Both the position numbers and the translations under genes were made by a program. This document shows, one piece after another, positions 1,630 to 63,657 of a stretch of DNA of 64,000 nucleotides. The notes below the pieces were generated by a model. That model had not been told where the DNA came from, ran no database searches, and saw only the letters and a program-made list of their open reading frames with translations. Numbering within the stretch: position 1 is the stretch's first letter; every line of letters starts with the position of its first letter. This DNA comes from a virus. The stretch lies in the IMG/VR virus record IMGVR_UViG_3300024344_003209, positions 1-64,000 of that record. One strand, 5' to 3'.

Positions 1630-1907
1630 GGTGATGATGCGTGACACTTGTAACATTTAGTTTGAATAAGCCATTCGTCGAGATTAATCAATTCATCTTT
1701 AAAAGAAGAATCTCTAGGCCCAGAAAATCCGTTTTCGTCGTAGCCTTCCGAATAATAAAAAATAGTCAGTTGCCTTCTATAATTGTGACATTCAGCAATT
1801 TGAGCTGCATCTTTAGCTTTAGAAAGCGCAGATAATAGCATTCCTACTAAAATAGTAATTATAGACAATGTGATTAAGAGTTCCAAAATTGTATAGCTTT
1901 TATTCAT
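1626..1907 (-). CDS. Small type IV pseudopilin with a C-terminal CxxCH motif
   Basis: The ATG at 1907 gives a 93-residue protein with a class III (prepilin) leader: MNKS, then YTILE with glutamate at position +5 of the mature protein, then about 20 hydrophobic residues. Processing by a prepilin peptidase between Ser4 and Tyr5 is expected. A start at 1982 would bury the leader, so I reject it. The helix is followed by [21 protein letters not shown], split here as [10 protein letters not shown] and [11 protein letters not shown], a pattern similar to Verrucomicrobiota pseudopilins. The tail ends CYKCH (residues 85-89), which matches a c-type haem attachment motif but may be coincidental. It overlaps the larger pseudopilin by 8 bases and the GspC-like gene by 4. 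Confidence 0.7.
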
Positions 1908-2880
1908 GGTAGGGCTTCCATGTTGGATGATGCCCCCAGCTATCGTTCCAATACCAGCCCCAAGAATCATAAACTTTCCCATTTACCTCTCTTGTATTCC
2001 AATCCCTATCATATCTAGCTATCCCTCCGATAACCGATCTCCAATTATGATTATTGTAATCAGTCTCTGTGGATCTTTCTCCTAGCCATTTCAAATCACG
2101 ATTATCAGGACTAACATACATATCTCTTGTGGTAGTTGGATTTTGAAGATGCTTAGGTATGTTTTTAGTATCTTCCTCTAGCCATCTTTTAAATTCAACG
2201 TGAGCATCAACAAAAGAAATAACTGAACCATTATTATGATAGACACCGGGCCAGTCCATGGAGAACGCATGCTCTTTTCCTTTTAATACTGGGGGAACTC
2301 TGAAATTCCCAGCGTTAATTGAGTTTGGAGGCATCTCAATAAAAGTAAAAGTTTTGCTAGTGTCTTTTACTTCTTCGTAGCGATGATGTATCTTGTATTG
2401 CGTGTCTTCCATAAATGGCCAGCCAGACCATCCTCCCACAAAAATATTGACACTATACGAGCGCGGCCTCGATACTCTCTTTGTCTTCCAATCTTCATTT
2501 GGGGATTTCGACTCGTATACTACAGTAGATCTATCGCCGGGGCAATGAAAGATGTTCATCCCTGCATAAGGCTTTAGAGGGGAGTAGAATAAGGGTCTAT
2601 CAGTTTGGCCCCAAGCTCCGTTACCGCTCATGCTGTCAGCTACCCAAGCCCACATTCCTGTCGGTTCATTTCTCCAAGCAGAAGCATAGGGGAATCTATC
2701 TTCGTGATCTCCAGCAAATTGGGTATAAGCTAGATTCAGTTGACGTTGATTATTTAAACAACTGGCTTGCCATCCTGTTTGTTTTGCGGAGCCGAGAGCT
2801 GGGAGTAATAAAGCAGCTAATATTGCAATAATTGCAATAACAACTAATAACTCTATTAAACTAAAAGCCCTTTCATTCAT
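1900..2880 (-). CDS. Type II secretion-type pseudopilin (H-X9-DG family)
   Basis: The 326-residue protein starts MNERA then [15 protein letters not shown], a textbook prepilin leader with glutamate at +5, cleavable by prepilin peptidase between Ala5 and Phe6. The following [10 protein letters not shown] and [12 protein letters not shown] segments are characteristic of the large pseudopilin-like family found mainly in Verrucomicrobiota, Lentisphaerota and Planctomycetota. Around residue 214, [13 protein letters not shown] is a variant of the H-X9-DG motif of this family, with alanine replacing glycine. The body is rich in Trp, Tyr and Asn and probably forms a surface domain. It heads the cassette with a small pseudopilin and a GspC-like protein. 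It is the best clue to the host phylum. Confidence 0.85.
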
Positions 2881-24116: not shown

Positions 24117-24797
24117 CTAATTAAATATTGGGTAAAGTTTTTCTGCTACTTTAAACTGCCATTCGTAATCAATATCGAAGGCCTCTAGCTCTTCCATTAC
24201 AAAAAGCTCAGGCTCTGGCGGTGAATTAGAGTCCATCCAATAGCCTTGCGAAATGAAATCCATTCTGCTAGCATAAAGACAATGAGCTGCTTCGAAAACT
24301 GGCTCGGCAATCTTAGTATTCATTATTGTGTGGCTTTTCCAGTCTGTAATAGACTTGCCTTCTTTATTCCAATAATAAGTTTTCTTCTCAAATACGGCAA
24401 ATCCTCCATCTTTCTCTGAATTTAAAAAACTTTTAATAAAAGAGTCTATAGTTTCTATCTTTAGAAGAGGGTTGCACGCACTAACTAGCACAACATATTT
24501 AAAAGGTAAATCTTTATGCCATTCATAAATTTCTGATAAAGGGTCTCCCTCTGACTTTGCTGAAGTCTCACTTCTGTTGTATACATTTATGCCATGTTCA
24601 TTCGCTATGTTTTTAAGTTCTGGCTCGTAAGCAGATAAAAAGATATTGTCGATCGAGATCGCCTTTGACTTTTTTAACTTATTAAATAATATGCTGACTA
24701 AAGAAGAGCCACAAAAGGGCTTTATCATTTTTTTTGGCAACCTTTGTGAGCCAAGCCTAGCTTGTACTACTAAGCAAACTTCATTTATATTTTTCAT
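24117..24797 (-). CDS. Acylneuraminate-type cytidylyltransferase (NeuA/PseF-like)
   Basis: The 226-residue protein matches enzymes that join CMP to nonulosonic acids. The nucleotide-binding opening is VQARLGSQRLPKKMIKPFCG (residues 11-30), and ACNPLLKIETID gives the next conserved stretch. It would activate the sugar acid made by the NeuB-like synthases two or more genes upstream, giving the donor for glycosyltransferases. Related enzymes act on pseudaminic, legionaminic or sialic acid; the sequence does not show which. It overlaps the 58-codon gene upstream by 4 bases. Confidence 0.8.
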   Translation of the reverse strand: MKNINEVCLVVQARLGSQRLPKKMIKPFCGSSLVSILFNKLKKSKAISIDNIFLSAYEPELKNIANEHGINVYNRSETSAKSEGDPLSEIYEWHKDLPFKYVVLVSACNPLLKIETIDSFIKSFLNSEKDGGFAVFEKKTYYWNKEGKSITDWKSHTIMNTKIAEPVFEAAHCLYASRMDFISQGYWMDSNSPPEPELFVMEELEAFDIDYEWQFKVAEKLYPIFN

Positions 24798-24970
24798 TTT
24801 AATTTTCCTAAGAGCTCAGATATTTCGTTATCTGATTTATTTATTCTCTTGATAAGGTTTTTTGTTTCTTCTGGAGCATGTTTTAGCGCAAGACGGAGTA
24901 TGTCCATCCAGTTTACATTATTTTTGCTCCTTACTTCCTGTATTGCATCTATGACTTCTAAATCTTTCAT
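24794..24970 (-). CDS. 58-residue protein between GNAT and cytidylyltransferase genes
   Basis: A 58-codon frame starts at the ATG at 24970 and ends with TGA overlapping the cytidylyltransferase ATG (ATGA). Its start overlaps the acetyltransferase stop by 4 bases. The protein reads as a compact helical unit: KDLEVIDAIQEVRSKNN, then NWMDILRLALKHAPEE and an acidic-basic C-terminal helix. As I recall, similar short NWMDILRLA proteins accompany cytidylyltransferases in other surface-sugar loci, so it may be an accessory of that enzyme; this should be checked. The double coupling makes it very likely real. Confidence 0.7.
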   Translation of the reverse strand: MKDLEVIDAIQEVRSKNNVNWMDILRLALKHAPEETKNLIKRINKSDNEISELLGKLK

Positions 24971-25407
24971 TTTTTTAAAATATAATACAAAAGGTCTTCG
25001 CTTTTTTTAGTGCGTAATTCAAAGCCGCTTCTTTCTGCTGCTTTTATTGAGGCTATATTGTCTTTTTTTATAGCACATAGAAACTCACCTTCCTTATTGT
25101 GAATAAAAAGCCTTATCATTAACTCTCCTAGTTTTTTACCTTGCTCGTTAGGACTGATGATGTAAGACAACTCGTAGCTATTTTTGCCTATAATATCTTG
25201 TCTTATTGTCCCTGCTGGATTGTTATGTACTAAAAATAAATATTGTTTTTTATTTTCGTCTTTAATTAAATTTTTTATGTACTGTTTGTGATTGTCTTCT
25301 TTTATTTCTTCTGTACTTATAGAGCGTTGTCTGACTGCGGGATCGTTCCTCCATTTTAAAAGTATTTCCCAGTCTTCAAAAACTATTGGTTTAAAGGCAA
25401 AATTCAT
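24967..25407 (-). CDS. GNAT acetyltransferase (PseH/WecD-like)
   Basis: The 146-residue protein is a GNAT-fold acetyltransferase: an opening that includes LLKWRNDPAVRQ, a central strand YELSYIISPNEQGKKLG where the QGKKLG loop would bind the acetyl-CoA pyrophosphate, and a closing AIKKDNIASIKAAERSGF. The WRND start is typical of the acetyltransferases that modify amino groups on UDP-sugars, such as PseH in the pseudaminic acid route. Its place among aminotransferase, synthase and cytidylyltransferase genes fits that step. It starts 14 bases after the NeuB-like gene. Confidence 0.75.
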   Translation of the reverse strand: MNFAFKPIVFEDWEILLKWRNDPAVRQRSISTEEIKEDNHKQYIKNLIKDENKKQYLFLVHNNPAGTIRQDIIGKNSYELSYIISPNEQGKKLGELMIRLFIHNKEGEFLCAIKKDNIASIKAAERSGFELRTKKSEDLLYYILKK

Positions 25408-25421
25408 CTTACTTTTCGTTA

Positions 25422-26429
25422 TTAAAATCTTTCTGTGTAGATTTCCAAGCCAGATATTGCTTGGTCTACATCAAAGTCCGCTGAAACTTTTTGTCCTATT
25501 GCAAATTCGTAGTTTATAGCGGGTATGTCATATTCAAAACAGGGTCTTTTTGTTGTTATGTTATCTTCTGACAAAATATCTCCTTTTTTTATTTGTTTTT
25601 TAGCTACGATAGATCTCATAGCAAACCTAAATTTCTCTTCAGATTTAGTAAAATGAGAATCCTTGACGCCGCATGCTTCTTCCGTAAACCTAATATACTC
25701 AACCATTTTTTGTAACTCGTCTGCCTCTAATGCAAATTTATGATCTGGCCCGATTAGGTTTCTATCTAAAGTAAAATGTTTCTCTATTACTTGAGCGCCA
25801 AGAGCAACAGCTAGTGATGGAGTTAGTATGGAGGTTGAATGATCAGATAAGCCGACCTTGCAATCGAACCTTAAACTTTTACTTGAAAACATAGACTTCA
25901 AATTTAAATCTGAAGTAGGAGTTGGGTAAGCGTTGTTGCAGTGTAGGAGAGTAAGCTCATTAGAGTGCTTCTCGCATATATCAAATATCTTACCTAAATA
26001 GTTAGCCGGAAAACCTATCCCTAGTGATATAACTAAGGGTAATTTAGAAGAAGCTACCATCTCGACGAATCTAAAATCTGTTGATTCAAAACCGGAAATT
26101 TTCAATCTATTAACACCTATGCCGACTAACTCTTCTACAGCCTTCTCGTCAAAAGGGGTAGACATAAATTCTATACCTTTGCCATCACAATATGACTTAA
26201 GCTGAGGTTGCCACTCTCTTGGCATTTCTATTCCTTTAATGAGGTTGTTTATGTCTTTGTAACCAGCAAAATCTGGTGTGTTTTTTCTGTATAGAGTGTC
26301 AGAAGAATAAGTCTGGAACTTTACAGCGTCACAACCAGAGACCACAGCTAAATCAACTAGCTCTAAGGCTTGTTTAAACTTTCTGTCGTGGTTGGCTCCT
26401 GCCTCAGCTATGATAAAAGTCTTATTCAT
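25422..26429 (-). CDS. neuB: NeuB/PseI-type nonulosonic acid synthase with SAF domain
   Basis: The 335-residue protein condenses phosphoenolpyruvate with an N-acetylated hexose to give a nine-carbon acid. The TIM-barrel start is FIIAEAGANHD, with CDAVKFQTY, HCNNAYPTP and DHSTSI further on, and EKHFTLDRNLIGPDHKFAL as a signature of the family. The last 60 residues (from about 275, SIVAKKQIKKGDILSEDN) form the antifreeze-like SAF domain normal for NeuB. A shorter NeuB-like protein is encoded at 30661-31491. It overlaps the aminotransferase by 8 bases. Confidence 0.9.
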   Translation of the reverse strand: MNKTFIIAEAGANHDRKFKQALELVDLAVVSGCDAVKFQTYSSDTLYRKNTPDFAGYKDINNLIKGIEMPREWQPQLKSYCDGKGIEFMSTPFDEKAVEELVGIGVNRLKISGFESTDFRFVEMVASSKLPLVISLGIGFPANYLGKIFDICEKHSNELTLLHCNNAYPTPTSDLNLKSMFSSKSLRFDCKVGLSDHSTSILTPSLAVALGAQVIEKHFTLDRNLIGPDHKFALEADELQKMVEYIRFTEEACGVKDSHFTKSEEKFRFAMRSIVAKKQIKKGDILSEDNITTKRPCFEYDIPAINYEFAIGQKVSADFDVDQAISGLEIYTERF

Positions 26430-27504
26430 TTATTATCTTTATTATTTTATCTAAATCTTGTTTAGTTAAATTTTGATGAATGGGTAGATTGATTACTCTG
26501 TCTTCTAGGGACTCTGAGTTTTCAAGACTAACATTAAGGCATTTATCTTTGTAGTATTTAGTTTTGTGCAAAAGCGGATAATGAAAAGATGCTGCTGCCC
26601 CTTTATTAATAAGCTTACGTCTTAGCTCGGTTGAAGATAACTGCGATTTTAAAATGAGAGTGCATAGGTAGTAAGATGAATTTTTGTCATGCTTGGTAAA
26701 GTAGCCTATGTTTTTTAATTCAGATTTTAAATATTCATAGTTACTTTTCCTTATATTAATATTTTTTTGAACGCTTTCCATCTGCCCTAAGCCTATAACA
26801 GCATTTATATTATTCATATAAAAATTAAAACCATCTCCTACTATATCGTAAGAAAGATCCGTATTTTTTCTACCAAAATTTCTGTAGTCTCTTACGTAAG
26901 AGTCTGCTTCGCTGTCATTTGTAGCTATCAAGCCTCCATTAGCCATTGTAAGTGGTTTTATTGGGTGGAAAGAAAAGAATGCATAGTCATAATCTATTCT
27001 AGGATTCAAGCAATGAGCAGAGTCTATAACTATAATATCATTCCAATTAGTATCTTTGACTCTTTCTATTAAGCCGGATATATCTGAAATACCTCCGTAT
27101 AAAACAGGCATAAAAACAGATTTATTAAAAGTTGCGTTATGTTGCCTCTCTAAATGAAATCGTCTTATATCCCAATAAGAATCAAAATTTACTGACAGAT
27201 TTTCATCTACATCTAAAAAATAAACATTATGACCATTAGCCATTGCTGCCCAAGCTGGAGAAGTAAATCCTATAGATGGAGTGTACACATCGCAAGACCC
27301 ATGCTTGCTGTAAAGATAAGAGAATAAGCAAAAGGCGGCGGAAGAAGCAGAATTTATACCTATATTATAGTCTTTTTTGGAAAAAGATTTGAACGATTGC
27401 TCGAACTTCGACACTTCTGAGCCAAAACCTAAAGATCCACCTCTAAGTAAATCAGAGACAGACTTTATTGTGCTTTCTTCTATTGTGGCTTCGAAGCAGT
27501 TCAT
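26422..27504 (-). CDS. DegT/DnrJ/EryC1 aminotransferase (PseC-like)
   Basis: The 360-residue protein is a sugar aminotransferase of the DegT family. The PLP-binding lysine is Lys183 in FSFHPIKPLTMANGG, and the cofactor aspartate is Asp161 in IDSAHCLN. It would transfer an amino group to the 4-keto sugar made by the PseB-like dehydratase two genes upstream, as PseC does for UDP-4-keto-6-deoxy-AltNAc. The front MNCFEATIEESTIKSV is a little shorter than usual. It overlaps the metallo-beta-lactamase-fold gene by 4 bases. Confidence 0.9.
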   Translation of the reverse strand: MNCFEATIEESTIKSVSDLLRGGSLGFGSEVSKFEQSFKSFSKKDYNIGINSASSAAFCLFSYLYSKHGSCDVYTPSIGFTSPAWAAMANGHNVYFLDVDENLSVNFDSYWDIRRFHLERQHNATFNKSVFMPVLYGGISDISGLIERVKDTNWNDIIVIDSAHCLNPRIDYDYAFFSFHPIKPLTMANGGLIATNDSEADSYVRDYRNFGRKNTDLSYDIVGDGFNFYMNNINAVIGLGQMESVQKNINIRKSNYEYLKSELKNIGYFTKHDKNSSYYLCTLILKSQLSSTELRRKLINKGAAASFHYPLLHKTKYYKDKCLNVSLENSESLEDRVINLPIHQNLTKQDLDKIIKIINE

Positions 27505-28838
27505 GAGTGAAAGAAGTTCATTGAGTAATAAAGTTTTCTCTCGTATACTTCTGGTTTCCTGAAAAATTCTATATGAGAGCCAATTTCTGCGTTATTCCAA
27601 TGAGCATATTTAGGCCCTCTTAAAATCCTATATAAGAGCTTGAAATTTAATTTATAAGATACAAATCTTTCGTCGCTAAAGTCTGCCTTATTTATGACAT
27701 TATATCCGCTTCCGTCGGCAGAAATCTTTAACATCTTTTCTTCTGGTAAATAAATGTAGATATTAGTATTAGTGGAAAAAGCTAGCTCTTCTCTTTTCTT
27801 GTTATATCTATTATAGGCTTCTGGTATTAATGATATTATAGAACTTAAACTAGGCTCTTCATCTTTGTCAAATATATATTTTTTATTTATTAAAACCTCT
27901 TCGCAGTGTTTTATTTGAGCCTCTCTATCTAAGGGTTTGTATTCTGGAATTGATTCGTTGTTAAGATTAAAAGAGGAAAAAGAGTTTAAGAGTAAGCCTT
28001 TACTTGAGTTGTTCTTTTCTTTGTAGAAATATAAAGCTTCGTCTAGAGTTGGCACTACCCTAAATCTCTCTAATTTAGCATTTCTACCAGATAGAACGTA
28101 AGTTCCAGCGAAGGGCATGTAGTATTTTGGTTGGACTTGATTTATGTAATCCAAACCCATATTAAGAAAATGATTTTTCTTTTTTACGCCATATCTATTA
28201 AGTTTATCTTTGTCAGAGTAACATGACCAACATTGAGGGTAAGACCCTGCTCCTGCATAACCAACTAAAAGCAAGTCAACAGGCTTGTGATTTTTTAAGG
28301 CTCTACTTAATGCGGTCTTGGAAAGCTCGTAAGGGCAATCATTTACATTAAGTATGCAATAACTAGAACTCTCAAATACAGACATTGTGTCTATACCTGT
28401 AGAGCCGCCGTCTACGCTTTTTGATTTACCGCACCCAAAGAATTTAAAACATATTTCTGGGTTGCAATCGTCAGAGGCATATATATGAATGTTAAGATCC
28501 GCTCCACATTTAAACTTTTCTCCGTGTTTTAACTCTATGACGTTTCTTCCTAATCTAGTTAAATTTCTTTTTAGGAATGGCTCATCGTACTTATGTATAA
28601 GCACAGGTATATCTTTTCTTATTCTCTTTAATGTCTCTTCACTAAGGTGGTCAGGATGTATGTGGCTAATATAAATATAATCTACGTCGTCGAACATAGA
28701 AAAATCCACCTCATCTAAAGAAGGGTGAATAGTCCAAGAGCCATAATATTCATCCCCAACTAACCAAGGATCACATAAGACTTTAGTGCCTTTGTTCTCT
28801 ATTAAAACTGCTGCCGAAGAAATATGAGTTATCTTCAT
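27501..28838 (-). CDS. CMAH-like metallo-beta-lactamase-fold protein without Rieske domain
   Basis: The 445-residue protein has a metal site HIHPDH (residues 59-64) and other pieces that line up with the non-Rieske part of vertebrate CMP-N-acetylneuraminate hydroxylase: YISHIHPDHLSEETLKRI, ILNVNDCP, LLVGYAGAGSYP and QVQPKYYMPFAGTYVLSG. The C-terminal 150 residues end in SHIEFFRKPEVY and YYSMNFFH. No Rieske iron-sulfur motif is present, so hydroxylation would need another electron donor or the reaction differs. Its place among nonulosonic acid genes supports action on the sugar or its CMP form. It overlaps the aminotransferase by 4 bases. Confidence 0.7.
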   Translation of the reverse strand: MKITHISSAAVLIENKGTKVLCDPWLVGDEYYGSWTIHPSLDEVDFSMFDDVDYIYISHIHPDHLSEETLKRIRKDIPVLIHKYDEPFLKRNLTRLGRNVIELKHGEKFKCGADLNIHIYASDDCNPEICFKFFGCGKSKSVDGGSTGIDTMSVFESSSYCILNVNDCPYELSKTALSRALKNHKPVDLLLVGYAGAGSYPQCWSCYSDKDKLNRYGVKKKNHFLNMGLDYINQVQPKYYMPFAGTYVLSGRNAKLERFRVVPTLDEALYFYKEKNNSSKGLLLNSFSSFNLNNESIPEYKPLDREAQIKHCEEVLINKKYIFDKDEEPSLSSIISLIPEAYNRYNKKREELAFSTNTNIYIYLPEEKMLKISADGSGYNVINKADFSDERFVSYKLNFKLLYRILRGPKYAHWNNAEIGSHIEFFRKPEVYERKLYYSMNFFHS

Positions 28839-28839
28839 T

Positions 28840-29829
28840 TTATTCTAATCCTGACTTTATTAGTGAGATAAGATGGCTTATATCATCATTTATATGTAGC
28901 GAAGAATTCAACTCTCGACCTTCGTACTTAGGCCAGTCTGACTGATAATTTATCTTGCTGTACTGAGGTCTCACTTGGATTAGATCATGAGTCGGAGCTA
29001 AGAAAGAAAAAGGCAATTCTGTGATAGAGAGCATATCCTCATGTATCTTTTCTCCGGGCCTCATTCCTGTAATTTTAGTTGGTATATCTTCTCCGTTTTT
29101 ACCGGAAATATTTTTTACTGCCTCTATAATAGACCCCATCTTAAAAGAATTTATTTGAGGTATAAAAACCTCACCACCTAAAGAATGGATAATAGCGTTT
29201 AACACTGTATCAACTGCGTCGTCTAGGGTAAACAAAAACCTAGAACATTCTAAAGAAGTGATGTTTATGCGTTTGTTTTCTTTGATGAGATCCATCCATA
29301 GTGGAATAAAGGATCCTCTGCTGGCTATAACATTCCCGTACCTTACTGATAGGAACTTAGTAGAGTTGGAGTTATAGTTATAGTTAGTAAAAATTCTTTC
29401 TGCTATGAACTTGGTGGAACCATAAACATTAACAGGCATACAAGCTTTATCTGTTGATATTAAAGCGCACTTGGAGACATCTGACTCTAAGCTAGCTCTA
29501 GCAACGTTATCAGAGCCTTCTATATTTGTCTTTACGCATTCGTCTGGATGACGCTCCATATCGTCCACCCTCTTCATGGCAGCGGTATGTATAACCAGAT
29601 CGGGTCTTTCTAAAAGCAAGGAGGTCTTAAGCTTTCTGTAGTCTCTGACATCGCCAATAATTGTTTTTACGTCTTTATCTTGTCCGAAATAAAGAGCCTG
29701 TTTTCCTTCATCCCTGCTGTAAACAACTAGTGAAGAATTGCTAGATTTAAGTCTTTTTATAAGACTTCTACCGAGCGATCCGGTACCGCCTGTTATGAAT
29801 ATTTTTTTATCTGAAAAGAAATCTGACAT
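28840..29829 (-). CDS. pseB: UDP-GlcNAc 4,6-dehydratase (PseB/CapD-type)
   Basis: The 329-residue protein is an extended short-chain dehydrogenase. It has ITGGTGSLGRSL (residues 12-23) for NADP, HTAAMKRVDDME, and the catalytic stretch STDKACMPVNVYGSTK (125-140) with Asp127, Lys128, Tyr136 and Lys140. This matches PseB and related inverting or retaining UDP-GlcNAc dehydratases, the first step of the pseudaminic acid route. It opens the seven-gene unit with the PseC-, NeuB-, GNAT- and cytidylyltransferase-like genes. A promoter lies 9 bases upstream of the ATG. Confidence 0.9.
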   Translation of the reverse strand: MSDFFSDKKIFITGGTGSLGRSLIKRLKSSNSSLVVYSRDEGKQALYFGQDKDVKTIIGDVRDYRKLKTSLLLERPDLVIHTAAMKRVDDMERHPDECVKTNIEGSDNVARASLESDVSKCALISTDKACMPVNVYGSTKFIAERIFTNYNYNSNSTKFLSVRYGNVIASRGSFIPLWMDLIKENKRINITSLECSRFLFTLDDAVDTVLNAIIHSLGGEVFIPQINSFKMGSIIEAVKNISGKNGEDIPTKITGMRPGEKIHEDMLSITELPFSFLAPTHDLIQVRPQYSKINYQSDWPKYEGRELNSSLHINDDISHLISLIKSGLE

Positions 29830-29869: not shown

Positions 29870-30661
29870 TTAAAAATTTCCTATTTTAGACAAAACATTG
29901 CAATCATGTCCTGCTCCTAAATTATTAAATACCACATCTTGACCTATCTCTTTTTGTAAATACGTTTTTAAGGTTAGATAGTGGTAGTAAAGTAATTTAT
30001 AAGGGTAGCCAGCTTTGCAGGGTTTGTTTTTTTCAAAAGAATGATTGTTTAAGTCTCCGACTTTGTAATCTTTAGAAGGTGGGCCATCTATGCCAGCAAA
30101 ATCAACTTGGCTAGCCCCTAGTAAAACTGCTAAAATAATTAGCTTAGGAGCAACTCCTATTTTGCCTTGAAATCTTAAAACACAATCAAAAACATTATTG
30201 GGTATTGTGTCATTTAATACTTTTACATTATCTGAACTTTTATTGTAGTCTTCAAAGCCTACTAATGTGTTGTTTTTAGTTACATAATCAATAAACTTAT
30301 CTCCTTTCAAATCTACCTCGTCGCATAATAAAATTAAATCTACTTTGCATTTAGATAGTTTTTCATTTAAAAAGAAATGATTGCAAGAAAATATATGGTC
30401 ATATTCATCTGGATTCCAATCGTACCAATTTGTTGTAGGGCCAGCGCCTAAAACTAGGATCTTTTTATTTTTAAACTTTTTTAATTCTGGGTTGTCTCTA
30501 TATATTATCTGAGAAGTTTTTATTAAATCTTTTTGTAAGAAATCGTATCTATTTAAATAATTAGCCCCTCTAGTTTTATTATTAGCGAAGTTTTCGGAGT
30601 TAGCTATAAAACAAGATAAAGGATCACTGTTTTCCCAAGTTAAATCGTAAAAATTCACCAT
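29870..30661 (-). CDS. GT42/DUF115-like Rossmann protein (putative sugar transferase)
   Basis: The 263-residue protein has a nucleotide-binding opening KILVLGAGPTTNWYD, then IFSCNHFFLN and, near residue 170, APKLIILAVLLGASQVDFAG followed by IDG. This order (GxGP loop, cysteine-asparagine segment, then a hydrophobic helix and a G-x-D strand) resembles Campylobacter CstII sialyltransferases and DUF115 proteins such as Maf, which transfer nonulosonic acids. The match is weak in detail, so the function is tentative. It overlaps the shorter NeuB-like gene by one base and has a partner of similar type at 31488-32144. Confidence 0.5.
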   Translation of the reverse strand: MVNFYDLTWENSDPLSCFIANSENFANNKTRGANYLNRYDFLQKDLIKTSQIIYRDNPELKKFKNKKILVLGAGPTTNWYDWNPDEYDHIFSCNHFFLNEKLSKCKVDLILLCDEVDLKGDKFIDYVTKNNTLVGFEDYNKSSDNVKVLNDTIPNNVFDCVLRFQGKIGVAPKLIILAVLLGASQVDFAGIDGPPSKDYKVGDLNNHSFEKNKPCKAGYPYKLLYYHYLTLKTYLQKEIGQDVVFNNLGAGHDCNVLSKIGNF

Positions 30662-31491
30662 TAGCCTCTTAGTTTTCTTCTAACTGGAAACTCAGAAGCT
30701 GATATGTATATTTCTCCATCTCCGTGAGCTTTTTCTAGTTCTCTTACACCACTAACTAACTTAAATAATCCTTGAGGCTCAACTGAGCTCATATGATCAG
30801 ACCCCCACATAGTTCTATCTAAGGTAACATGCCTTTCAATTATACTGGCCCCAAGGTAAACAGAAGCGACAGAGGTTCCTAGCCTGAACTCATGCCCGCT
30901 GTAACCAACTTCGCAATCGTATTTTTCTTTAAGTGTTTTTATGCAAGAAAGATTTAATTCATCTATAGGTGCTGGGTAGGTAGAGTTACAATGGAGAACG
31001 GCTAAATTCTTAGTGTATCGCCTTATAAGGGCAACGCAATCATCTATTTCTTGCTCAGAACTCATACCTGTTGAAATAATTATCTTTTTACCTGTTTTTG
31101 ATGCCTCTGCGACTAAGTTTATATTTGTAATCATAGCCGAAGGTATTTTAATAAACGGTATGTCGTACTGCTGTAAAAACTTCAAACTATCTAAATCCCA
31201 AGGAGAGGCGCTCCAAGATACGTTTTGTTGCTTGCAGTAGTTATCTATCTCGTTATATTCTTCTTGATTAAATTCTACTTTATATTTATATTCTAAGTAG
31301 GTCATCTCGCCCCAAGGAGTTTTCCGTTTTATATTTTTTTGATGTTCTGGAACGCAAACGTCAGGGTTTCTTTTCTGGAATTTAACAGCATCACATCCTG
31401 CTGCAGCAGAAATATCAATAAGTCTTTTGGCTGTATCAAGGCAACCATTGTGATTAATGCCGATTTCCGCTATAATGTAAGTCTTTTTCAT
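30661..31491 (-). CDS. Second NeuB-like synthase, lacking the SAF domain
   Basis: The 276-residue protein is a NeuB-type TIM barrel: YIIAEIGINHNG, CDAVKFQKRNPD, HCNSTYPAPIDEL and the signature ERHVTLDRTMWGSDHMSS. It stops at about the place where the SAF domain would begin, ending FPVRRKLRG. In NeuB and PseI the SAF domain helps close the active site of the neighbouring subunit, so this form may be specialised or inactive. Short forms are known in some sugar loci. It lies between two GT42/DUF115-like genes, while the longer NeuB is in the next unit. Confidence 0.85.
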   Translation of the reverse strand: MKKTYIIAEIGINHNGCLDTAKRLIDISAAAGCDAVKFQKRNPDVCVPEHQKNIKRKTPWGEMTYLEYKYKVEFNQEEYNEIDNYCKQQNVSWSASPWDLDSLKFLQQYDIPFIKIPSAMITNINLVAEASKTGKKIIISTGMSSEQEIDDCVALIRRYTKNLAVLHCNSTYPAPIDELNLSCIKTLKEKYDCEVGYSGHEFRLGTSVASVYLGASIIERHVTLDRTMWGSDHMSSVEPQGLFKLVSGVRELEKAHGDGEIYISASEFPVRRKLRG

Positions 31492-32144
31492 GACAATATG
31501 TTTAAACTAACTCCTTTAGAGGATAGCCAATCTTTTATGCTGGGTACAGCTTTTGAATTTAGTACTATGTCCCAAGGTATTTCGCAACCTTTATTGGAAA
31601 CAGAGCCTTCTTTATAGAAATGACTTCCGTGTCTATCTAGATCCCAACCTATTGTAGTTATGGAGGATACTCCAATATGTAAAGCCATGTAGAGAACAGT
31701 CTCCAGCATTATGCCGGGACCTGTGCATCTTTCTGTGCAGGTTTTACTTATCAGAAAATCATCATAATTTTTCTTAAAAGCTAATACATTTTCTTTACCT
31801 CCTATTTCTTCTATTAAAGGTATTCTAAAAAATATATCATGATGTTGTTGTGGGTTCCATCTGGCTCCTAATTCATAGTTGCTGCTAGCGACAACAATTT
31901 CAGGCTTATGATCAACATACCTGTAGGGTATATTCATATAATCTATAGGAAGATTTGAGCAATTCCAGAAATGAAAGTCAGTTTCTTCTGGAAACCTATC
32001 GTAAGCTTGCTTGATAGAAAATACTAGATTATTTTTTAATTTATTTCTAGTATCTTTATTATCGTGTTTGTTTAAAGATGGGCCGCAAGCTAATATGTAG
32101 CAATCTTGCCCGTTTTTGCAATTTTCTAAATCTTTAAGATCCAC
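31488..32144 (-). CDS. GT42/DUF115-like protein (putative sialyltransferase-type)
   Basis: The 218-residue protein begins with a nucleotide-binding YILACGPSLN loop. It later has TGPGIMLETVLYMALHIGVS and a TTIGWDLDRHGSHFY segment. This parallels CstII-type GT42 sialyltransferases and DUF115 proteins (AGNGPSLK, then a TSGV helix and SGIDFY). I infer transfer or handling of the CMP-activated nonulosonic acid. It is the first gene of a three-gene unit with the short NeuB and the other GT42-like gene. A promoter lies 10 bases upstream of the ATG. Confidence 0.55.
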   Translation of the reverse strand: MDLKDLENCKNGQDCYILACGPSLNKHDNKDTRNKLKNNLVFSIKQAYDRFPEETDFHFWNCSNLPIDYMNIPYRYVDHKPEIVVASSNYELGARWNPQQHHDIFFRIPLIEEIGGKENVLAFKKNYDDFLISKTCTERCTGPGIMLETVLYMALHIGVSSITTIGWDLDRHGSHFYKEGSVSNKGCEIPWDIVLNSKAVPSIKDWLSSKGVSLNILS

Positions 32145-32185: not shown

Positions 32186-32701
32186 TTAAGTTGGAAGTAT
32201 TTTTATGAGCTGATCGTTAACTCTAGCAAGACCCTCTGGTGTGTCTTTGCCTTTCATTTTAATTTTAATTTTTGTTAAATTTTCTTGACCTCTGGTCCCT
32301 GTTATTTGAGCGGATAGCTTATTATTGTTGTTGTTTATCTCGTCTTCGAAGTGGCTAAGATTTACAGATAGCTCCATCTCGAGCTCGTCAATAGCTAAGT
32401 GAGCATTATTAGTCAGGGTTATTAAGGGTATATGTGTCTCTGTTACTTCTCCGTTATTTCCGGGAAGTTTTACCTTAAAAGTTTTTGCGTTCCCATCGCT
32501 GTCAAAATATGTAGACATTACCCTGCCTAAATGCTCGGTCTCTACTTTTCTTTGAGCAAAAGCGACAGAATTATATATAGACTGAACTAACTTATCTAAT
32601 GAATTAGAATCCTCCTGACCACCTTGCCCCTCGCTTGAAAGCGAGGGTTGGGGTGGTTCGGTGGGAGGTGAAATTCCTAAAGAATAATTAGTTAATCCCA
32701 T
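32186..32701 (-). CDS. DUF2589-like protein
   Basis: The 171-residue protein starts with a proline- and glycine-rich stretch, then LDKLVQSIYNSVAFAQRK, and a beta-rich core with THIPLITLTNNAHLAIDELE, followed by a closing KGKDTPEGLARVNDQLIKIL. These match the pattern of DUF2589, a family of unknown function found as neighbouring pairs in many bacteria. Here the second member is the next gene upstream. The shared PEGL(A/M)(R/K)V near both C-termini supports a common fold. A virion or membrane-associated role is possible. Confidence 0.65.
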   Translation of the reverse strand: MGLTNYSLGISPPTEPPQPSLSSEGQGGQEDSNSLDKLVQSIYNSVAFAQRKVETEHLGRVMSTYFDSDGNAKTFKVKLPGNNGEVTETHIPLITLTNNAHLAIDELEMELSVNLSHFEDEINNNNNKLSAQITGTRGQENLTKIKIKMKGKDTPEGLARVNDQLIKILPT

Positions 32702-32714
32702 TTATTGTCTTGAT

Positions 32715-33344
32715 TTACGGGCCTGCGGGGGCGGGTGCTGGGGCTGAAGCTCCACCTTGAGGCGCGGGTTTGATAGCGTCTCCTAATATATCCAGCACTT
32801 TCATTAGACCTTCTGGGGCTCCATCATCTCTTGCTTCACAGTGAACCGTGTACCTAGCTGAGTTATCACTCTTTCTTGTGTTTTCGCTCTTACTACCTAC
32901 AGAAGCTGTAACTGAAGCGCTAACAGGAGACCACCAAGCTTTATAATTCGCTTTAGTCGTAACGTTCGCTGTCGTTGAACTTTTGCTTTCGCTAGTAGAT
33001 TGAACCTTCATATCAAAGTCAATCTTAACATCTTTAACAGATAAATTTGGGGTATTTACGATAGCTAAAAGAGGAACCTTCATGGTTCTAGGTTCGGCTA
33101 CAGTAGTAGTGGTTTCTACTCCATTACCATCAGTACTTTTGTGCTCCACAACAGCATCGTAGTCGAACTCAACAGTTCTGGCACTAAGTTTTCCTGTGTT
33201 AGAATCTTTTTCTAGCCCTACTTCTTCGATAAATTGCTCGGTAATTCCGGCTAATTTACCTTGGGCTTGAGCAGCCGCGATAAGTGGGTTTGCGATGAGC
33301 TCGCCAATTGGGAGCCCTTTAAATTGATCTGATATACTAGACAT
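32715..33344 (-). CDS. DUF2589 family protein
   Basis: The 209-residue protein is a clearer DUF2589 member: FKGLPIGELIANPLIAAAQA and GKLAGITEQFIEEVGL at the front, then KVPLLAIVNTPNLSVKDVKI and IDFDMKVQSTSESKS in a beta-rich core, a VTASVGS segment and an Ala/Pro-rich tail (SAPAPAPAGP). Function of the family is unknown. It heads a two-gene unit with a DUF2589-like partner. The TAGTGTAAT element 23 bases upstream is shared with the giant structural-looking gene, which suggests late expression and perhaps a virion role. Confidence 0.75.
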   Translation of the reverse strand: MSSISDQFKGLPIGELIANPLIAAAQAQGKLAGITEQFIEEVGLEKDSNTGKLSARTVEFDYDAVVEHKSTDGNGVETTTTVAEPRTMKVPLLAIVNTPNLSVKDVKIDFDMKVQSTSESKSSTTANVTTKANYKAWWSPVSASVTASVGSKSENTRKSDNSARYTVHCEARDDGAPEGLMKVLDILGDAIKPAPQGGASAPAPAPAGP

Positions 33345-46237: not shown

Positions 46238-46576
46238 CTACCATTTGTCAATAGGACATTTCTCTTGAGTAAAGTACGCTTTAAGCGGCACTACGCATCC
46301 ACACTTTTGGCATCTTTCTCCTTTGTCTGAAAACCAAGGGCAGCTTCTGCATATGGAAGTTCTTTTTGAGTAAAGTTCCTGTTTAGCTACTATTTCTTTT
46401 CCTTGTAAAGCTGCCTTTGTAGTATTAGCGATACTTCTTGTTATATTTTTCGCCATTTTGAATCCGCTAGGCATCTTCACTACTTCTTTTTTTTCTAAAT
46501 TTTTTAAAGATCTAGTTCTAGATGTACTTCCGAAGGAAGGCTCTTCTCCCGCTTTTTCTTTATACTCGTTAGCCAT
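46238..46576 (-). CDS. Phage zinc-ribbon protein at the end of the giant gene unit
   Basis: The 112-residue protein has a disordered, basic front and a C-terminal zinc ribbon: RTSICRSCPWFSDKGERCQK, then CGCVVPLKAYF and KCPIDKW. The arrangement CxxCP...CxxCGC...CP..KW is common in a small protein of tailed phages. It overlaps the end of the giant gene by 8 bases, so it is expressed with it and may be a structural or assembly factor. It converges with the plus-strand gene, leaving 6 bases. Confidence 0.65.
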   Translation of the reverse strand: MANEYKEKAGEEPSFGSTSRTRSLKNLEKKEVVKMPSGFKMAKNITRSIANTTKAALQGKEIVAKQELYSKRTSICRSCPWFSDKGERCQKCGCVVPLKAYFTQEKCPIDKW

Positions 46577-49500
46577 TTTTCATCAAGTCGAACCTTAGTT
46601 GCTCATCACTAATCATAAAGACTTTTCTACCAAAAGGCGAACATTTATGAACACAAGGGCCTGCTTGGAAGTTTTGGTTAAACAAACCATCGGATCTTCT
46701 AACTATCATTTCTGTTTTGTTCGTACCGTAAACAGCAAGAGCCTGAGTAAATTCTGGCTCTATTTTAAATGTTTGTTTTCCAGCAGACGGATCTATTCTT
46801 TCTCTTGATGAAAACTCAAATTCTTGCATAGATGGCCCTATGATATCATCTCCATCAGCTAAGCCAAAATATTCTTCGTAACTTTGTACGTTACCTGTTC
46901 CACCTCTAACATCTCCGTCGGTGCATAAGCTGTGATAGCCTTGTTCCTTGTCGACTGTTCCTATCTTTTCGTTTTTACATATACCTCTAGTTTGCAGAAT
47001 TGTTCCATTTATGTTTTCTATCTTACCTAATCCATCTTCTCCTACAGCGCTCTTAAGGAAGCTAGGCGAAGGCACTATCTCAAATTCTGTCCATTCTATA
47101 GTTGTCTTTAAAAACGTAGACCAAAAAGGTTTTCCGCTTATCTGACACCCAAATATTATTTCGTTCTCGTAAGAAGTGTCTATTATTTCAGATCCAGCTA
47201 TATTGACAATAGAAACATCAGTATCCATAGTTTCGCTTGTAATATCATATTCCTCACTTGTATAAACTAGTTCGCCCCCGAACGCAAAAGCTCTTCTTTT
47301 ATTTAAGTTTGGCAAATCTAATCCTTTCTCTTGCGTAAGAACTTTTCCAGCACTATCTCCAGATACATCTCCATACGAAGCAGGGAAACAAAATACCCCA
47401 TTCTCTTCTGGTATATTTACCTTATTAGGCAGGCCTATATCTTTGGGAATATAATTTGCATCAAACACTTGATCTGTTTTAAACTCTTCAATATCATAAG
47501 TAGCTTTAGTTATATTTGACTTTACTTGACCCTGCAGCCCTTTAAAGCCGGAGAACCAAGCTCTCTTATATTTCTTTTCTTTATGGTCGTAAAAATCTAT
47601 AAAATTTTGCTTAGATAAAGCTTCGTATGTTAATGCTTGATAACTTTCATTTATTCTAACAATCTCTTCTCCTGCATTGCTAGGATCTTCCGGAGAGAAT
47701 GTCATATTAGCCATATCCTCTACATACCTATATTCATATTTTCTATATTTTCTTACCTTTGCGAACACAGGAACATAAGCCCCCAAGAATCTCATGTTAT
47801 TAATAGTTCTAACATAATTATTAAAGACTTCTCCAGTAACAGGAGACGTAGGATTAATACCAAACCCTTTAGGTAGGCTAGGATTTTGCTCTCTTGAAAA
47901 AGAACTTAACCAAGGTTGAGATTTATTGGCTATCTCATTTTTTACAACTCTATATTCCGCTATAGAATTATTATTAACTATTGCTGTTAAGACAGGTTTA
48001 GTTGGTTCTGGGAAAACTTCCTTCTCGCAACTGCCGTCTTCTTTTATAGTTACAGATATCTCTTGAGTAGCTTCTCTTTCGTCTGCTTCATATAGCCCTA
48101 AATGCTTACTGCTTTCTGTGCCTTGTAAATCGCTATATTCATCTTCTGTTGAAATTGCGTAAGATTGAGTATCTTTTATTTCTATGTTACGTTCGTTTAA
48201 ACTATCTTCTCTTGCTTTAATTTTTCTTTCTATATCTTCTACAGTGTTCCAGTTATCGCTTTCTGATACAGCATTTAAAGTATTAACATATTTAGTTAAT
48301 GTAGTTTTAAAATCTGCTATGGCTTGAGCACTTTCTGAGTCATCTACCCCAAAAGACTCCTCGACATATTCTGCTAAAGCTTCTGCCTCATCAGCTAATA
48401 TACCAAAATTCTCTTGGCATTCTCCCGTATCTTCTGTAATATTATTAACTGTGACATCGGCCGTCTTTACCCCTTTATGCTCTGAAAGCGATATATAAGG
48501 CATCTGACGCTCTTTATAGTCTATTGAAATCGAAGAAGCCTGAGTGGCAGTAGCCTGTTTACTTAGTGTGAATTGAGTCAAGCTGTTTATCTTTTCTACT
48601 CTTGTGTCAGAGGGTACGCCAGTTCCCGAGACTCTAGCTCCTAATATTATATTCTTTTGTCCATCGTGATTAACTAGTTTACTATTGTTAGTTAAATTAA
48701 AAGTATGAGTAAAGCTAGAATCCTGTATAACCATACTATGAAAAACAAAAGGAATATCGCCCTTCGCCCTATCTATAACTTTTTGCTTGCCTGCTTCAGA
48801 ACTTACATCAGAATATCCAGCCCCCGAGTCAGAAACCTCTACATAAATAACTTTTCCTGACTCAATATGAGCTATAGCTTTCGAGGTTTTAGTTAGTAAT
48901 CCTTTTTTAGGCTCCGGATCTTCTATTACAATGTCAGGAGCGACCCTGTAGTCAGAACCACCGGACTCTATAACTACCTTAGATATTCCTCCTACTGCTA
49001 TTTTATCTACATAGGATGCTTTTAGTCTATGGGAGAGTCTATACTTATATAATCTCTCATGAGGTATATTAATGTCGTAATTATCAGCTACCCTAGAGTA
49101 TTCATGACAACCAAAAAGACTTACCCCTTCCTTAGGAATAGATATAGAATTCCCTATTAAATGGTTCTCAGCGAGATCAAGGCTAAATATCCCATCTACA
49201 GACTCGCCTATATCAGACTGCCTTATTACAGATCGCCAATCAAAGGGAAGCCTCATTAACTCATTGCGTCTAAAGTGTTTTAACACCCCTTCGTCGTAAT
49301 ACTGGAAAGTCTCATTTTTTATAGCCATCCTGTAAGTGCCAGTAAACGAACCCGCAGTACCAGAAGAACCAGAACTTCCCGAGCTCCCTGAAGGACTAGC
49401 CCCTAAGGAGACTCTAAAATTTTGTTTGTCGTCTATCTCTATGCTTAAATTTTCCTTTCCTGAAACCTGAACCCAGCTACCAGACTCTAATCTCTGTAAG

Positions 49501-52500
49501 TTAAATCTTATTGACTTAGGTTTATTTCTAAACGAAGAAGAGCCATCGTCTTTAGGAGGCTCGAAACCGTTAATAAACCCTTTGACATGGTCCTCCGTTA
49601 AGCTAAAAGACAACTCCATTCCGCCGTCAAGTAATACTGGGTATATGTATTTAACTGTTGCTGGTAAAGGCCCGTCATAAGCTAGCCCGTGATCAGTTGT
49701 AGTACTCCTTAATAATTCATATTTTTTATCAAGACTAAATAACCTATCTAAATTTTCGGTATAAGAAAATGAAGAAGGAGTAAATAGAACGTGCTCTGAA
49801 TCTGCATTGTAATTATTTAAATTAGGTACTTGATAGTCCATATAATCAGCAGCTATGGTATCATCGTTAGTTGTTTTCTTTATTTGGTCAACATAGTAAG
49901 CTGACTCAGTTATAAATATAGAAGTATATAGAGTTTCTAGTAAATCTTTCTTTGCGTCACTAAATAAAAACTCCTCTGTGTCTTGCGCATCAAAATGAAA
50001 AAATGTTTCAGTGTTAAAATCCTTATATTTATAAAGTATTTCTATTTCTCCATTTTCACAGATAAAATAATCTAACTTCTTGCCGCTAATAGAAACTTCA
50101 GCCCCATTAATTAAAATCTTAGCTTCGTCGCCTTCGCCCTCTATATTGCCTCCATTTAATATATATCTATATTCTTTTCCTTTCGTTAGCTTGACTACTA
50201 CTCTAACCTCTTTGTTAAAAATACTTACAAAATCTATAGTAGTATTATTTCGGAATAATATATTTTTAAAGCTTGCAAATATATCTAAGTCATGCCAATA
50301 AATATTCTCATCCAAATCTATTAAAGATGTTCTAGCTTTAGTTTTGTCTCGGTTATTTCCTGTTAAGTCACTTTCGTTAGAGACTAAACCCTCAGCGACA
50401 GCAGATAACTCTAAGTTCGCTCTAACAGAAAATACATTTCCTTCTTGGGTGTATATATTATCTGAAGTTGTAGCAAAAGCTTCGGCTGTATTCGGGCTTT
50501 CGTAACTATCCTCATTTTCCTCGTCAGAAACCCCGACTGAATAATCTTTATAAGAAGGTCTTTCTAGATAAAATCTCTTATTGTTCACTATAATAGGAAA
50601 GTTAAGAGACGTATATTGAGTATCGTCTATTCCGTGATCGTATATTTTATTAATTACCGGATTCTGTCCCCTGTAACCATCTACTCTTCGCCCTTTGTTA
50701 TCTAGTTGAGGCTGCAGGTTGAAGTAGTTTACTATTTTGTATTTATTACCAGAGAACCCTGCGCTGTCTATAATATTAACAGCATCGTAAGTTAAATCTG
50801 TATTTCGTTCGTCGTTATCAAATACATTTAGCACTTCATATAAATTAGAGCCCTTTTCTTCCCCATCTGCTGCTACAGCAAAAATTCTTAAAAAGTACAC
50901 TCTCCCTGCTTTTATTTTATTAGGCCCAGATGTTCCTGCATCATGTTTGAATACTATAGCATCTCCGTTATCTACATTATTTAATCTTATAAAAGTCTTT
51001 CCATTATCAGTAGTCGCTTCTATATCGTTCCATCCACCAAAAGTATTAAGTTTTGCTACTCCTCCGGGTCTTGCTATGTCTTGATAAGATATTGATTCTA
51101 ACTCAGAATCTAATATATATCTAAGTTTAGCTTTGCTTGTATTATTTGTTAGGTATGTTCCTATTTTAGCATCTTTAGTTAAATCATTAAATACTATTTT
51201 TTTGTTAGTTAATTTTTTTAATCTAAACCTAACGCTACTATAAGAAGCTTTATCTCTATTTAAATTAAATCTGAATCCAACCATTGGGTCAGGCCCAGAA
51301 TGCACCCCAAAAGGAACAAAAGAATATCCATGATTATTTTTTAAAGACAAATGAGCTTTATGATTTCTTTGGTTTATCTCTATTTGATTAGCCTTCATGT
51401 ACTCATCAAGAGGCAGGAGTCTTTCGTCTGCATCTCTAACCTCCTTGCTTTGTTGTTCATATCGAGCTTTTATTCTGTCCATAGCTTTTACGCTTTGCTC
51501 TTCTGATATGGCTGAAGAAAAATCTTCATTAAGGCTTCTTACAACCCCGTCGGGAGCAAAAGGCGCACTGTCTTTATCTTCTATAGATAACCTTATTAAG
51601 TCGTGAGGAGCAGAATTTAACTTTAAGGAAGATTTTATCTTGTACTCATAAGCAGGAGATTCTATGTTAGACTGATTTCTTTGATTCTTATATCCAACTA
51701 AATTAACTCTTACCCTTATAACTTTTTCAACTTTATCTTCTATTGTTATCTTTTCATCCCCTGATTGAATTATTGTATAATCTGAAGCTAAGGTGCCCTC
51801 TAGCAATGGTATAGTAAATTCAAAATTTCTCGTGTGGTGCCAATTACCTTTTTCATATTCGTTAATAACAAAAAGACCACCACCTTTTTTATCTACTTCA
51901 TTAATATATCGCCCCTCTATATTTTTTATTTTTCTTCCCTGTATGAGTTCATAAGCAGCGCCGCTTGACACTTTTTCTTCTACCACCGCATTTAGAAAAT
52001 TATTTCTATGTTCGTTAAGAGAAACCTTACTCCAAGCGGGAGATTTAACAGCACTAGTGGGGTCATCTATTTTACTTTGAAATATTTTAGCAAAATCTGT
52101 TTTTTCGTCAGATTTAATAGAGGCGTCTTCAGCTGAATCATCTATATCTTCTACTCCGTATTGAGAAAATTTTAGATCAAAATGATAAGGCATATTTAGC
52201 TTATATTCAGTTAATCCAACACCTTTTATTTTTTCTCCGGGTCCGTAAACTTCTCCATTATACGTTAAAGTAACCTCTTCTGAGTAATCTTTTTGTTCGT
52301 ATTCCTTTTTATTAAAGAGTCTACTGAAATTATCTATTTCAATATTATTTAAATCATAAACAAAATCATAATCAAAAACTTCTTCCGACTCAAAAGAATG
52401 GTATCTATCCGGCTTAAAGCCTGATAAAGTTATTTCGCCTGTTCTTTCGTTAAAGTGAGAGCATTTTGTTATTCTTTCGTGGCCAGTATTGAGACCGTAA

Positions 52501-63635: not shown

Positions 63636-63657
63636 CAAACCTTAAACCTTGCACTTA

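What the first reader, a model, noticed from the sequence alone, without database searches (positions are those of the whole stretch)
27501..28838. CMAH-like enzyme without a Rieske domain
Segments around HIHPDH, NVNDCP, GYAGAGSYP and QPKYYMPFAGTYV line up with the CMP-Neu5Ac hydroxylase family from memory. Loss of the Rieske part would change the chemistry. It could also fill the missing hydrolase step of the pathway.
Basis: partly seen in the sequence, partly recalled or inferred. Interest (0 to 1): 0.6.

Follow-up and report, generated by a model that had tools for sequence, protein, structure and literature searches.

The report
Rieske-less sugar hydroxylase relative in phage
A virus of microbes carries a set of genes for making a sialic-acid-like sugar, and among them a protein built like the enzymes that add an oxygen atom to the side group of such sugars in mycobacteria (and reportedly animals), but without the iron-sulphur domain that those enzymes use.

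Summary
The gene is real: a 445-aa minus-strand ORF coupled between PseB- and PseC-like genes of a pseudaminic-type nonulosonic acid (NulO) cluster on a 99-kb virus record. All four motif blocks are there. No CMAH sequence was available, but a better relative was: NamH (Rv3818), the UDP-MurNAc N-acetyl hydroxylase of actinobacteria. Profile comparison aligns the whole protein (residues 1-443) with a Rieske-bearing set that includes NamH-type proteins (E 4.6e-46), and the C-terminal domain has NamH's kind of SCP2-like fold. The Rieske domain is absent; 52 of 66 relatives carry a Cys triad near the active-site motifs instead. Two of the usual metal-binding His of MBL hydrolases are replaced, which argues against an ordinary hydrolase. 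The 'missing hydrolase' idea is disfavoured: in 8 cellular clusters a PseG-type gene sits near this gene, although 13 of 13 virus records lack PseG. Best reading: a Rieske-less NamH/CMAH-type oxygenase that hydroxylates an N-acyl group of a NulO or its nucleotide-sugar precursor (N-acetyl to N-glycolyl), with electrons from elsewhere. Homology and context are shown; the chemistry is inferred. New variant of a known kind.

The parts
27501..28838 (-). the gene: 445-aa metallo-beta-lactamase (MBL) plus SCP2-like protein, no Rieske domain
27939..28838 (-). MBL domain, residues 1 to about 300
   Evidence: Pfam Lactamase_B_3 1.1e-10; structural matches cover model residues 1-318
27504..27887 (-). 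C-terminal SCP2-like domain, residues 318-445
   Evidence: model pLDDT 96.5; VIA-align Z 9.6, rmsd 3.2, 105 aligned to SCP2-like 3bdq; Foldseek top rows SCP2, E 1.6e-3
28647..28664 (-). HIHPDH, MBL motif 1, residues 59-64
   Evidence: H59, H61, D63, H64 invariant 66 of 66
28431..28472 (-). D123-x-C125-x4-C130-x5-C136 loop, absent from NamH-type rows
   Evidence: all three Cys in 52 of 66 rows; absent from NamH-type rows
28389..28391 (-). D150, conserved Asp shared with NamH, possible metal ligand
   Evidence: 65 of 66; aligned with a NamH Asp
28335..28343 (-). N166-D167-C168 (motif 4 Asp plus a Cys that goes with the Cys triad)
   Evidence: D167 66 of 66; C168 with triad 49/3/1/13, Fisher p 3.6e-10, relatedness not corrected
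28104..28115 (-). PFAG, residues 242-245, in place of the motif 5 His of MBL hydrolases
   Evidence: A244 66 of 66; aligned to the VPVHYNT region of UPF0173 and to PSAG of NamH-type rows
28840..29829 (-). PseB-like UDP-GlcNAc 4,6-dehydratase (inverting)
   Evidence: TIGR03589 3.2e-76, 256 bits, below its cut-off of 407.75
26422..27504 (-). PseC-like aminotransferase, overlaps the gene by 4 bases
   Evidence: TIGR03588 1.8e-46; coordinates
25422..26429 (-). NulO synthase (NeuB/PseI) with SAF domain
   Evidence: PF03102, PF08666; TIGR03569 1.4e-86
24967..25407 (-). PseH-like N-acetyltransferase
   Evidence: TIGR03585 1.1e-13
24117..24797 (-). CMP-NulO transferase (PseF-like)
   Evidence: PF02348 3.2e-18; TIGR03584 7.2e-12
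30661..31491 (-). second NeuB-type synthase without SAF domain
   Evidence: PF03102 only
31488..32144 (-). MptE-like protein, candidate NulO transferase
   Evidence: PF01973 3.9e-5, below cut-off; Maf-like role is recall and inference
29870..30661 (-). unassigned cluster protein kept in related viral clusters
   Evidence: no family hit; relatives in clusters 12 and 36

Best explanation
The gene encodes a Rieske-less member of the NamH/CMAH type of MBL-SCP2 proteins. It most likely binds iron in the MBL site (H59, H61, D63, H64, D150, D167) and, with O2 and electrons, hydroxylates the methyl of an N-acetyl (N-acyl) group on the sugar being made by the phage cluster, so that the NulO carries an N-glycolyl group. 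The substrate would be a UDP-sugar of the Pse branch or the CMP-NulO. Shown: the gene, its coupling with pseB and pseC homologues, full-length homology to NamH-type proteins, the MBL and SCP2-like folds (predicted), loss of two canonical hydrolase ligands, absence of a Rieske domain, linkage to NulO synthases in viruses, bacteria and one archaeon. Inferred: iron, oxygenase chemistry, the N-acyl target, and the electron source (a host ferredoxin, or a metal site made by the family's own Cys).
For: HHalign against four Rieske-bearing homologues: probability 100, E 4.6e-46, residues 1-443, against probability 98.2, E 4.4e-14 and residues 1-294 only for UPF0173 hydrolases. L008 and L009 in that set carry Pfam SCP2_Rv3818 plus Rieske and L008 sits beside murB; NamH is Rv3818, UlaG plus Rieske, and N-glycolylates muramic acid (PMC10050696, passages). 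C-terminal domain is SCP2-like. Motif 5 His replaced by PxAG as in NamH-type rows. 17 of 80 cellular and 13 of 14 further viral loci hold a NeuB-family gene within the fetched stretch of up to 10 kb each side. Bacteroidia: 8 of 8 genomes with the MBL profile have NeuB against 162 of 295 overall, p 0.0076; Rhodobacterales 3 of 3 against 78 of 244, p 0.032. Pse5Am7Gc, an N-glycolyl pseudaminic acid, exists in Tannerella forsythia (PMC4030854, passages).
Against: No Rieske domain in the protein or on 13 virus records, so the electron path of NamH and CMAH is missing. Pfam SCP2_Rv3818 does not hit the protein even at E up to 1. Structural Z values do not separate CmlA from UlaG-like hydrolases and RNase J. 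9 of 13 haloarchaeal genomes with the gene have no NeuB, and 0 of 26 haloarchaeal loci have NeuB nearby, so the family is not bound to NulO. Without the genomes known beforehand the co-occurrence is weak: p 0.046 and 0.31; five of the eight Bacteroidia matches are distant. No activity, metal or product has been measured.
Confidence: 0.5

Rival explanations
1. It is a metal-dependent hydrolase or other non-redox enzyme that modifies the sugar (for example N-deacylation or cleavage of a nucleotide sugar other than the PseG step) and that lost the redox domain together with the redox chemistry.
For: MBL fold with complete HxHxDH; structural matches include UlaG-like hydrolases, SaxA and NAPE-PLD with Z 20-22; no Rieske or other redox domain.
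Against: Motif 5 His is Ala in 66 of 66 rows and motif 3 His is replaced, a PxAG state shared with the hydroxylase NamH; curated hydrolase model NF001911 reaches 27.6 of 144 bits.
Confidence: 0.3
2. It replaces PseG in the phages: it removes UDP from the 2,4-diacetamido sugar so that PseI can use it.
For: No PseG (TIGR03590) on 13 of 13 virus records although PseB, PseC, PseI, PseH and PseF homologues are present in the window's cluster; some cellular NulO clusters with the gene, such as L011, have no convincing PseG in the genome.
Against: A PseG-type gene lies 1.1-8.9 kb from the gene in 8 of 17 cellular loci with NeuB; viral clusters L094-L096 and L099 have the gene but no PseC homologue nearby; canonical hydrolase ligands are lost; virus records may be fragments and a host could supply PseG.
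Confidence: 0.1
3. It is a structural or regulatory remnant of the hydroxylase (for example a substrate-binding or scaffold protein of the cluster) without catalysis of its own.
For: Loss of the redox domain; stand-alone genes far from NulO clusters in several Bacteroidota (L010, L014, L056).
Against: HxHxDH and D167 invariant over 66 rows from archaea, bacteria and viruses point to a working metal site.
Confidence: 0.1

Closest known systems
NamH (Rv3818), UDP-N-acetylmuramic acid hydroxylase of mycobacteria and relatives
   Same: MBL (UlaG-like) plus SCP2-like core, full-length profile match, shared DPW, HxHxDH, D150, ND167, YP201, PxAG
   Different: NamH-type proteins have a C-terminal Rieske domain and lack the Cys loop; peptidoglycan, not NulO, context; about 24% identity
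CMAH, CMP-Neu5Ac hydroxylase of animals
   Different: CMAH has a Rieske domain (recalled; at the N-terminus) and is stimulated by cytochrome b5 (PMC4819959, passage); no CMAH sequence was available to compare
CmlA and FrsH, diiron hydroxylases with an MBL domain
   Same: First Foldseek hit and best profile hit (FrsH entry 8a90) in the PDB; oxygenases without a Rieske domain (function partly recalled)
   Different: Their MBL domain starts about 250 residues into the chain; the match covers model residues 1-292 only
UPF0173/UlaG-like metal-dependent hydrolases and SaxA
   Same: Same MBL branch, HxHxDH and motif 4 Asp
   Different: Motif 3 and motif 5 His replaced in the window family; UPF0173 proteins align to residues 1-294 only
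PseG, UDP-2,4-diacetamido-trideoxy-altropyranose hydrolase
   Same: Only the pathway context
   Different: Other fold (GT-B, recalled); no TIGR03590 match; both genes occur together in 8 loci

Membership tests
NamH/CMAH N-acyl hydroxylases | MBL domain with HxHxDH and motif 4 Asp | tested here: met
   66 of 66 rows
NamH/CMAH N-acyl hydroxylases | PxAG in place of motif 5 His, and conserved Asp at 150 | tested here: met
NamH/CMAH N-acyl hydroxylases | SCP2-like domain after the MBL domain | tested here: met
   predicted fold, Z 9.6 to 3bdq; the sequence model PF25451 itself gave no hit
NamH/CMAH N-acyl hydroxylases | Rieske [2Fe-2S] domain | tested here: not met
   no Pfam hit or motif; 0 of 13 virus records
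NamH/CMAH N-acyl hydroxylases | sequence match to an animal CMAH | not testable with these tools
   no CMAH sequence in the collections; PDB profile search gave none
NamH/CMAH N-acyl hydroxylases | O2-dependent hydroxylation of an N-acetyl group | not testable with these tools
   needs an enzyme assay
UPF0173/UlaG-like hydrolases | motif 3 and motif 5 His of the dinuclear site | tested here: not met
   replaced by D123 and by PFAG; NF001911 27.6 of 144 bits
PseG UDP-sugar hydrolase | match to TIGR03590 | tested here: not met
   no hit of the protein or of the virus record
CmlA-type diiron hydroxylases | CmlA N-terminal domain before the MBL domain | tested here: not met
   the MBL domain starts at residue 1
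CmlA-type diiron hydroxylases | carboxylate in place of motif 3 His (feature recalled) | tested here: inconclusive
   D123 or D150 could serve; no coordinates were at hand

The most novel reading that the evidence does not exclude
A phage-borne and widely spread family of O2-dependent N-acyl hydroxylases that works without a Rieske domain because its own four Cys (125, 130, 136, 168), next to the motif 3 and motif 4 ligands, hold a metal or iron-sulphur site; it makes N-glycolyl nonulosonic acids, so that phages, bacteria and archaea build counterparts of Neu5Gc.
Probability: 0.2. Interest if true: 0.82.

Novelty: new variant of a known kind. Interest (0 to 1): 0.58.

Why it matters
N-glycolyl groups are described as rare, known essentially from Neu5Gc and N-glycolylmuramic acid (PMC6481270, passage). 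A Rieske-free branch of the same protein type inside nonulosonic acid clusters of viruses, bacteria and archaea would extend this chemistry to phage-made sugars, offer a simpler enzyme for studying how the MBL site activates an unreactive methyl group (a review of 2016 said that no CMAH structure had been reported: PMC4819959, passage), and give a gene marker for N-acyl-modified NulOs.

Tried and rejected
PseG replacement as a general role: rejected for cellular clusters because a PseG-type gene is near the gene in 8 of them; kept at low weight for phages. Plain UlaG-like hydrolase: disfavoured by the motif 3 and motif 5 changes. Phage records of GenBank: no relative. Structural comparison to choose between oxygenase and hydrolase: tied Z values, so not used. 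Viral predicted structures: no convincing full-length match. Papers on NulO plus metallo-beta-lactamase: one unrelated listing; phage NulO papers: listings only, among them a phage-encoded pair that turns pseudaminic acid into its 8-epimer (PMC12053666, start of abstract in the listing). The paper most likely to treat the spread of CMAH (PMC5767959) is not held. Tannerella as a direct test of the N-glycolyl link: its genome could not be reached by name; that species is an anaerobe (recalled), which speaks against an O2 enzyme there.

A Rieske partner in trans: outside the MBL genes, four ORFs of the fetched loci hold the motif CxH..CxxH, of which I judge two Rieske-like (L032, L035), neither adjacent to the MBL gene.

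Full report
What is there. The window is the first 64,000 bases of a 99,223-base virus record with phage-type replication genes: a DNA polymerase, DnaB-like helicase, UvsX-like recombinase, ribonucleotide reductase and thymidylate synthase. On the minus strand lies a tight set of genes: an MptE-like protein, a SAF-less NeuB, an unassigned protein, a PseB-like dehydratase, the gene in question, a PseC-like aminotransferase, a NeuB/PseI synthase with SAF domain, a PseH-like acetyltransferase, a CMP-transferase and a GDP-mannose dehydratase-like protein. One base lies between the PseB-like ORF and the gene, and the gene overlaps the PseC-like ORF by four bases (coordinates). None of the Pse-type matches reaches its curated NCBIfam cut-off, so the exact NulO is not known.

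The protein. Pfam sees only MBL-type matches in the first 196 residues. An AlphaFold2 model from 66 aligned sequences has mean pLDDT 94.0 and pTM 0.92; residues 136-144 are below 50. Foldseek's first PDB hits are CmlA, UPF0173 of Thermotoga, NAPE-PLD, FrsH and SaxA. The second look gives Z of about 20-22 to UlaG-like hydrolases, CmlA, FrsH and RNase J alike and covers residues 1-318 only, so it does not tell function. The C-terminal part, folded alone (residues 318-445, pLDDT 96.5), matches SCP2-like domains: Z 9.6, rmsd 3.2, 105 aligned to 3bdq, Foldseek E 1.6e-3 to UbiJ-SCP2. The Foldseek E-values are modest, but nearly all top rows are SCP2.

The relatives. A protein search of plasmids gave full-length haloarchaeal relatives (34-36% identity) and, over residues 1-249, actinobacterial proteins (Rhodococcus ruber, E 7e-21). 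Two of the latter, L008 and L009, are 516-517 aa, end in a Rieske motif, match Pfam SCP2_Rv3818 at 2.1e-48 and 3.8e-48 plus Rieske, and the R. ruber one stands next to murB. NamH is Rv3818, has an N-terminal UlaG and a C-terminal Rieske domain and turns N-acetyl- into N-glycolylmuramic acid (PMC10050696, passages). I therefore take L008 and L009 as NamH-type. HHalign of the 66-row alignment with L008, L009 and two further Rieske-bearing proteins found in a Bacteroidia and a Rhodobacterales genome (L117, L123) gives probability 100 and E 4.6e-46 over residues 1-443; with nine UPF0173 proteins it gives 98.2 and 4.4e-14 over residues 1-294. The two E-values come from single-template comparisons and rank the likeness only.

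The active site. Motif 1 (59-64) and the motif 4 Asp (167) are invariant in 66 of 66 rows. In the UPF0173 alignment the motif 3 His falls at about D123 (Asp in 51 of 66) and the motif 5 His falls in PFAG, where A244 is invariant. NamH-type proteins share the PxAG state and the Asp aligned with D150 (65 of 66), and lack the D123 loop. This ligand set differs from that of dinuclear MBL hydrolases; which residues bind metal is inferred.

Cysteines in place of Rieske? 52 of 66 rows have C125, C130 and C136; C168, next to D167, goes with them (49 with both, 3 triad only, 1 C168 only, 13 neither; Fisher p 3.6e-10, not corrected for relatedness). Three distant Bacteroidia relatives (L119-L121) have a C-terminal CxxCxxC instead, and others (14 of the 66 rows, and L122) lack the triad. 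So the same core occurs with a Rieske domain, with two different Cys-rich sites, or with none seen. That these sites carry electrons is a guess; C136 lies in a poorly modelled loop.

Where it occurs. One search kept 80 of 101 cellular loci. A NeuB-family gene lies inside the fetched stretch (up to 10 kb each side) in 17 of 80: 17 of 54 non-haloarchaeal and 0 of 26 haloarchaeal loci (haloarchaea counted by me from the record titles). In L011, L012, L020, L048 and L050 the two genes are 1.2-1.3 kb apart centre to centre. Of the 14 further viral loci 13 have NeuB; several look like near-copies because their neighbours have equal scores (L001 and L003; L090 and L091; L094-L096). Of 34 genomes whose locus mostly has no NeuB nearby, 22 have NeuB somewhere: 18 of 21 non-haloarchaeal (one of them a weak partial hit) and 4 of 13 haloarchaeal. 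In even samples, 8 of 8 Bacteroidia genomes with the profile have NeuB against 162 of 295 (p 0.0076), and 3 of 3 Rhodobacterales against 78 of 244 (p 0.032); without genomes known beforehand p is 0.046 and 0.31. The link with NulOs is thus real but not exclusive; haloarchaeal members can sit among other sugar-nucleotide genes or not.

PseG. TIGR03590 matches 18 of 39 genomes or records, 8 over the cut-off; 0 of 13 virus records. In 8 loci (L012, L025, L048, L050, L051, L055, L084, L085) the PseG-type gene is 1.1-8.9 kb from the gene; five of these eight genomes have a match over the cut-off. An organism with PseG beside this gene does not need it as a PseG. For phages the gap remains: the host may supply PseG, the records may be incomplete, or another protein does it.

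Tree. On 70 rows eight viral proteins including the window's form one clade (99/93), with a Bacteroidota clade as neighbour (91/90, below the starred level). The NamH-type rows join by a branch of 3.68 changes per column, so their exact place is unsure.

Chemistry. A review states that CMAH is a distant homologue of the prokaryotic genes for N-glycolylmuramic acid and that both use a mono-oxygenase reaction (PMC6481270, passage); another says that CMAH is likely an oxygenase stimulated by cytochrome b5 and its reductase (PMC4819959, passage). N-glycolyl pseudaminic acid exists in T. forsythia (PMC4030854, passages); a study of its glycan cluster set aside eight ORFs of no evident role in carbohydrate metabolism (PMC6120980, passages). 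Most carriers named are aerobes by my recall, which fits an O2 enzyme. Together this makes N-acyl hydroxylation the likeliest reaction, at about one half, with a non-redox sugar modification next.

Verdict. The name should be 'Rieske-less NamH/CMAH-type MBL-SCP2 protein of a NulO cluster', not CMAH: a defining feature, the Rieske domain, was tested and is absent.

Noticed in passing
window 30661-31491: A second NeuB-type synthase lacks the SAF domain (276 aa); relatives of it stand in most related viral clusters, often beside a full-length synthase, and similar short NeuB matches occur in Rhodobacterales.
   Followed up: partly
L094, L095, L096, L099 around 7.5-12.7 kb: Viral clusters with SAF-less NeuB, PseB, the MBL gene and a CMP-transferase but no PseC homologue within the locus; what NulO they could make is unexplained.
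   Followed up: no
L117 10963-12498 and L123 7342-8868: A Bacteroidia and a Rhodobacterales protein with MBL and C-terminal Rieske domain (SCP2_Rv3818 match in L117 only), on contigs that also hold NeuB: possible Rieske-bearing NulO hydroxylases outside actinobacteria.
   Followed up: partly
L119 6455-7957, L120 8669-10168, L121 3080-4588: About 500-aa relatives that end in a CxxCxxC motif where NamH has its Rieske domain.
   Followed up: partly
window 31488-32144, L002 7442-8185, L093 8230-8988: MptE-like (PF01973) proteins in the clusters; by recall this domain is part of Maf NulO transferases, so the phage may also attach the sugar.
   Followed up: no
L090 13121-13954, L092 11361-12200: PhyH-type dioxygenase genes (PF05721) in the viral NulO clusters: further oxygenases acting on the glycan are possible.
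   Followed up: no
window 46569-63638: An open reading frame of 5689 codons; a 1213-residue piece from its N-terminal part includes a Laminin_G_3 domain.
   Followed up: no
window 1900-2880: A protein with a type IV pilin-like N-terminal methylation motif (PF07963) of the kind that I recall from Planctomycetota and Verrucomicrobiota; a possible hint at the host.
   Followed up: no
window 32186-33344: Two neighbouring DUF2589 proteins next to the sugar cluster.
   Followed up: no
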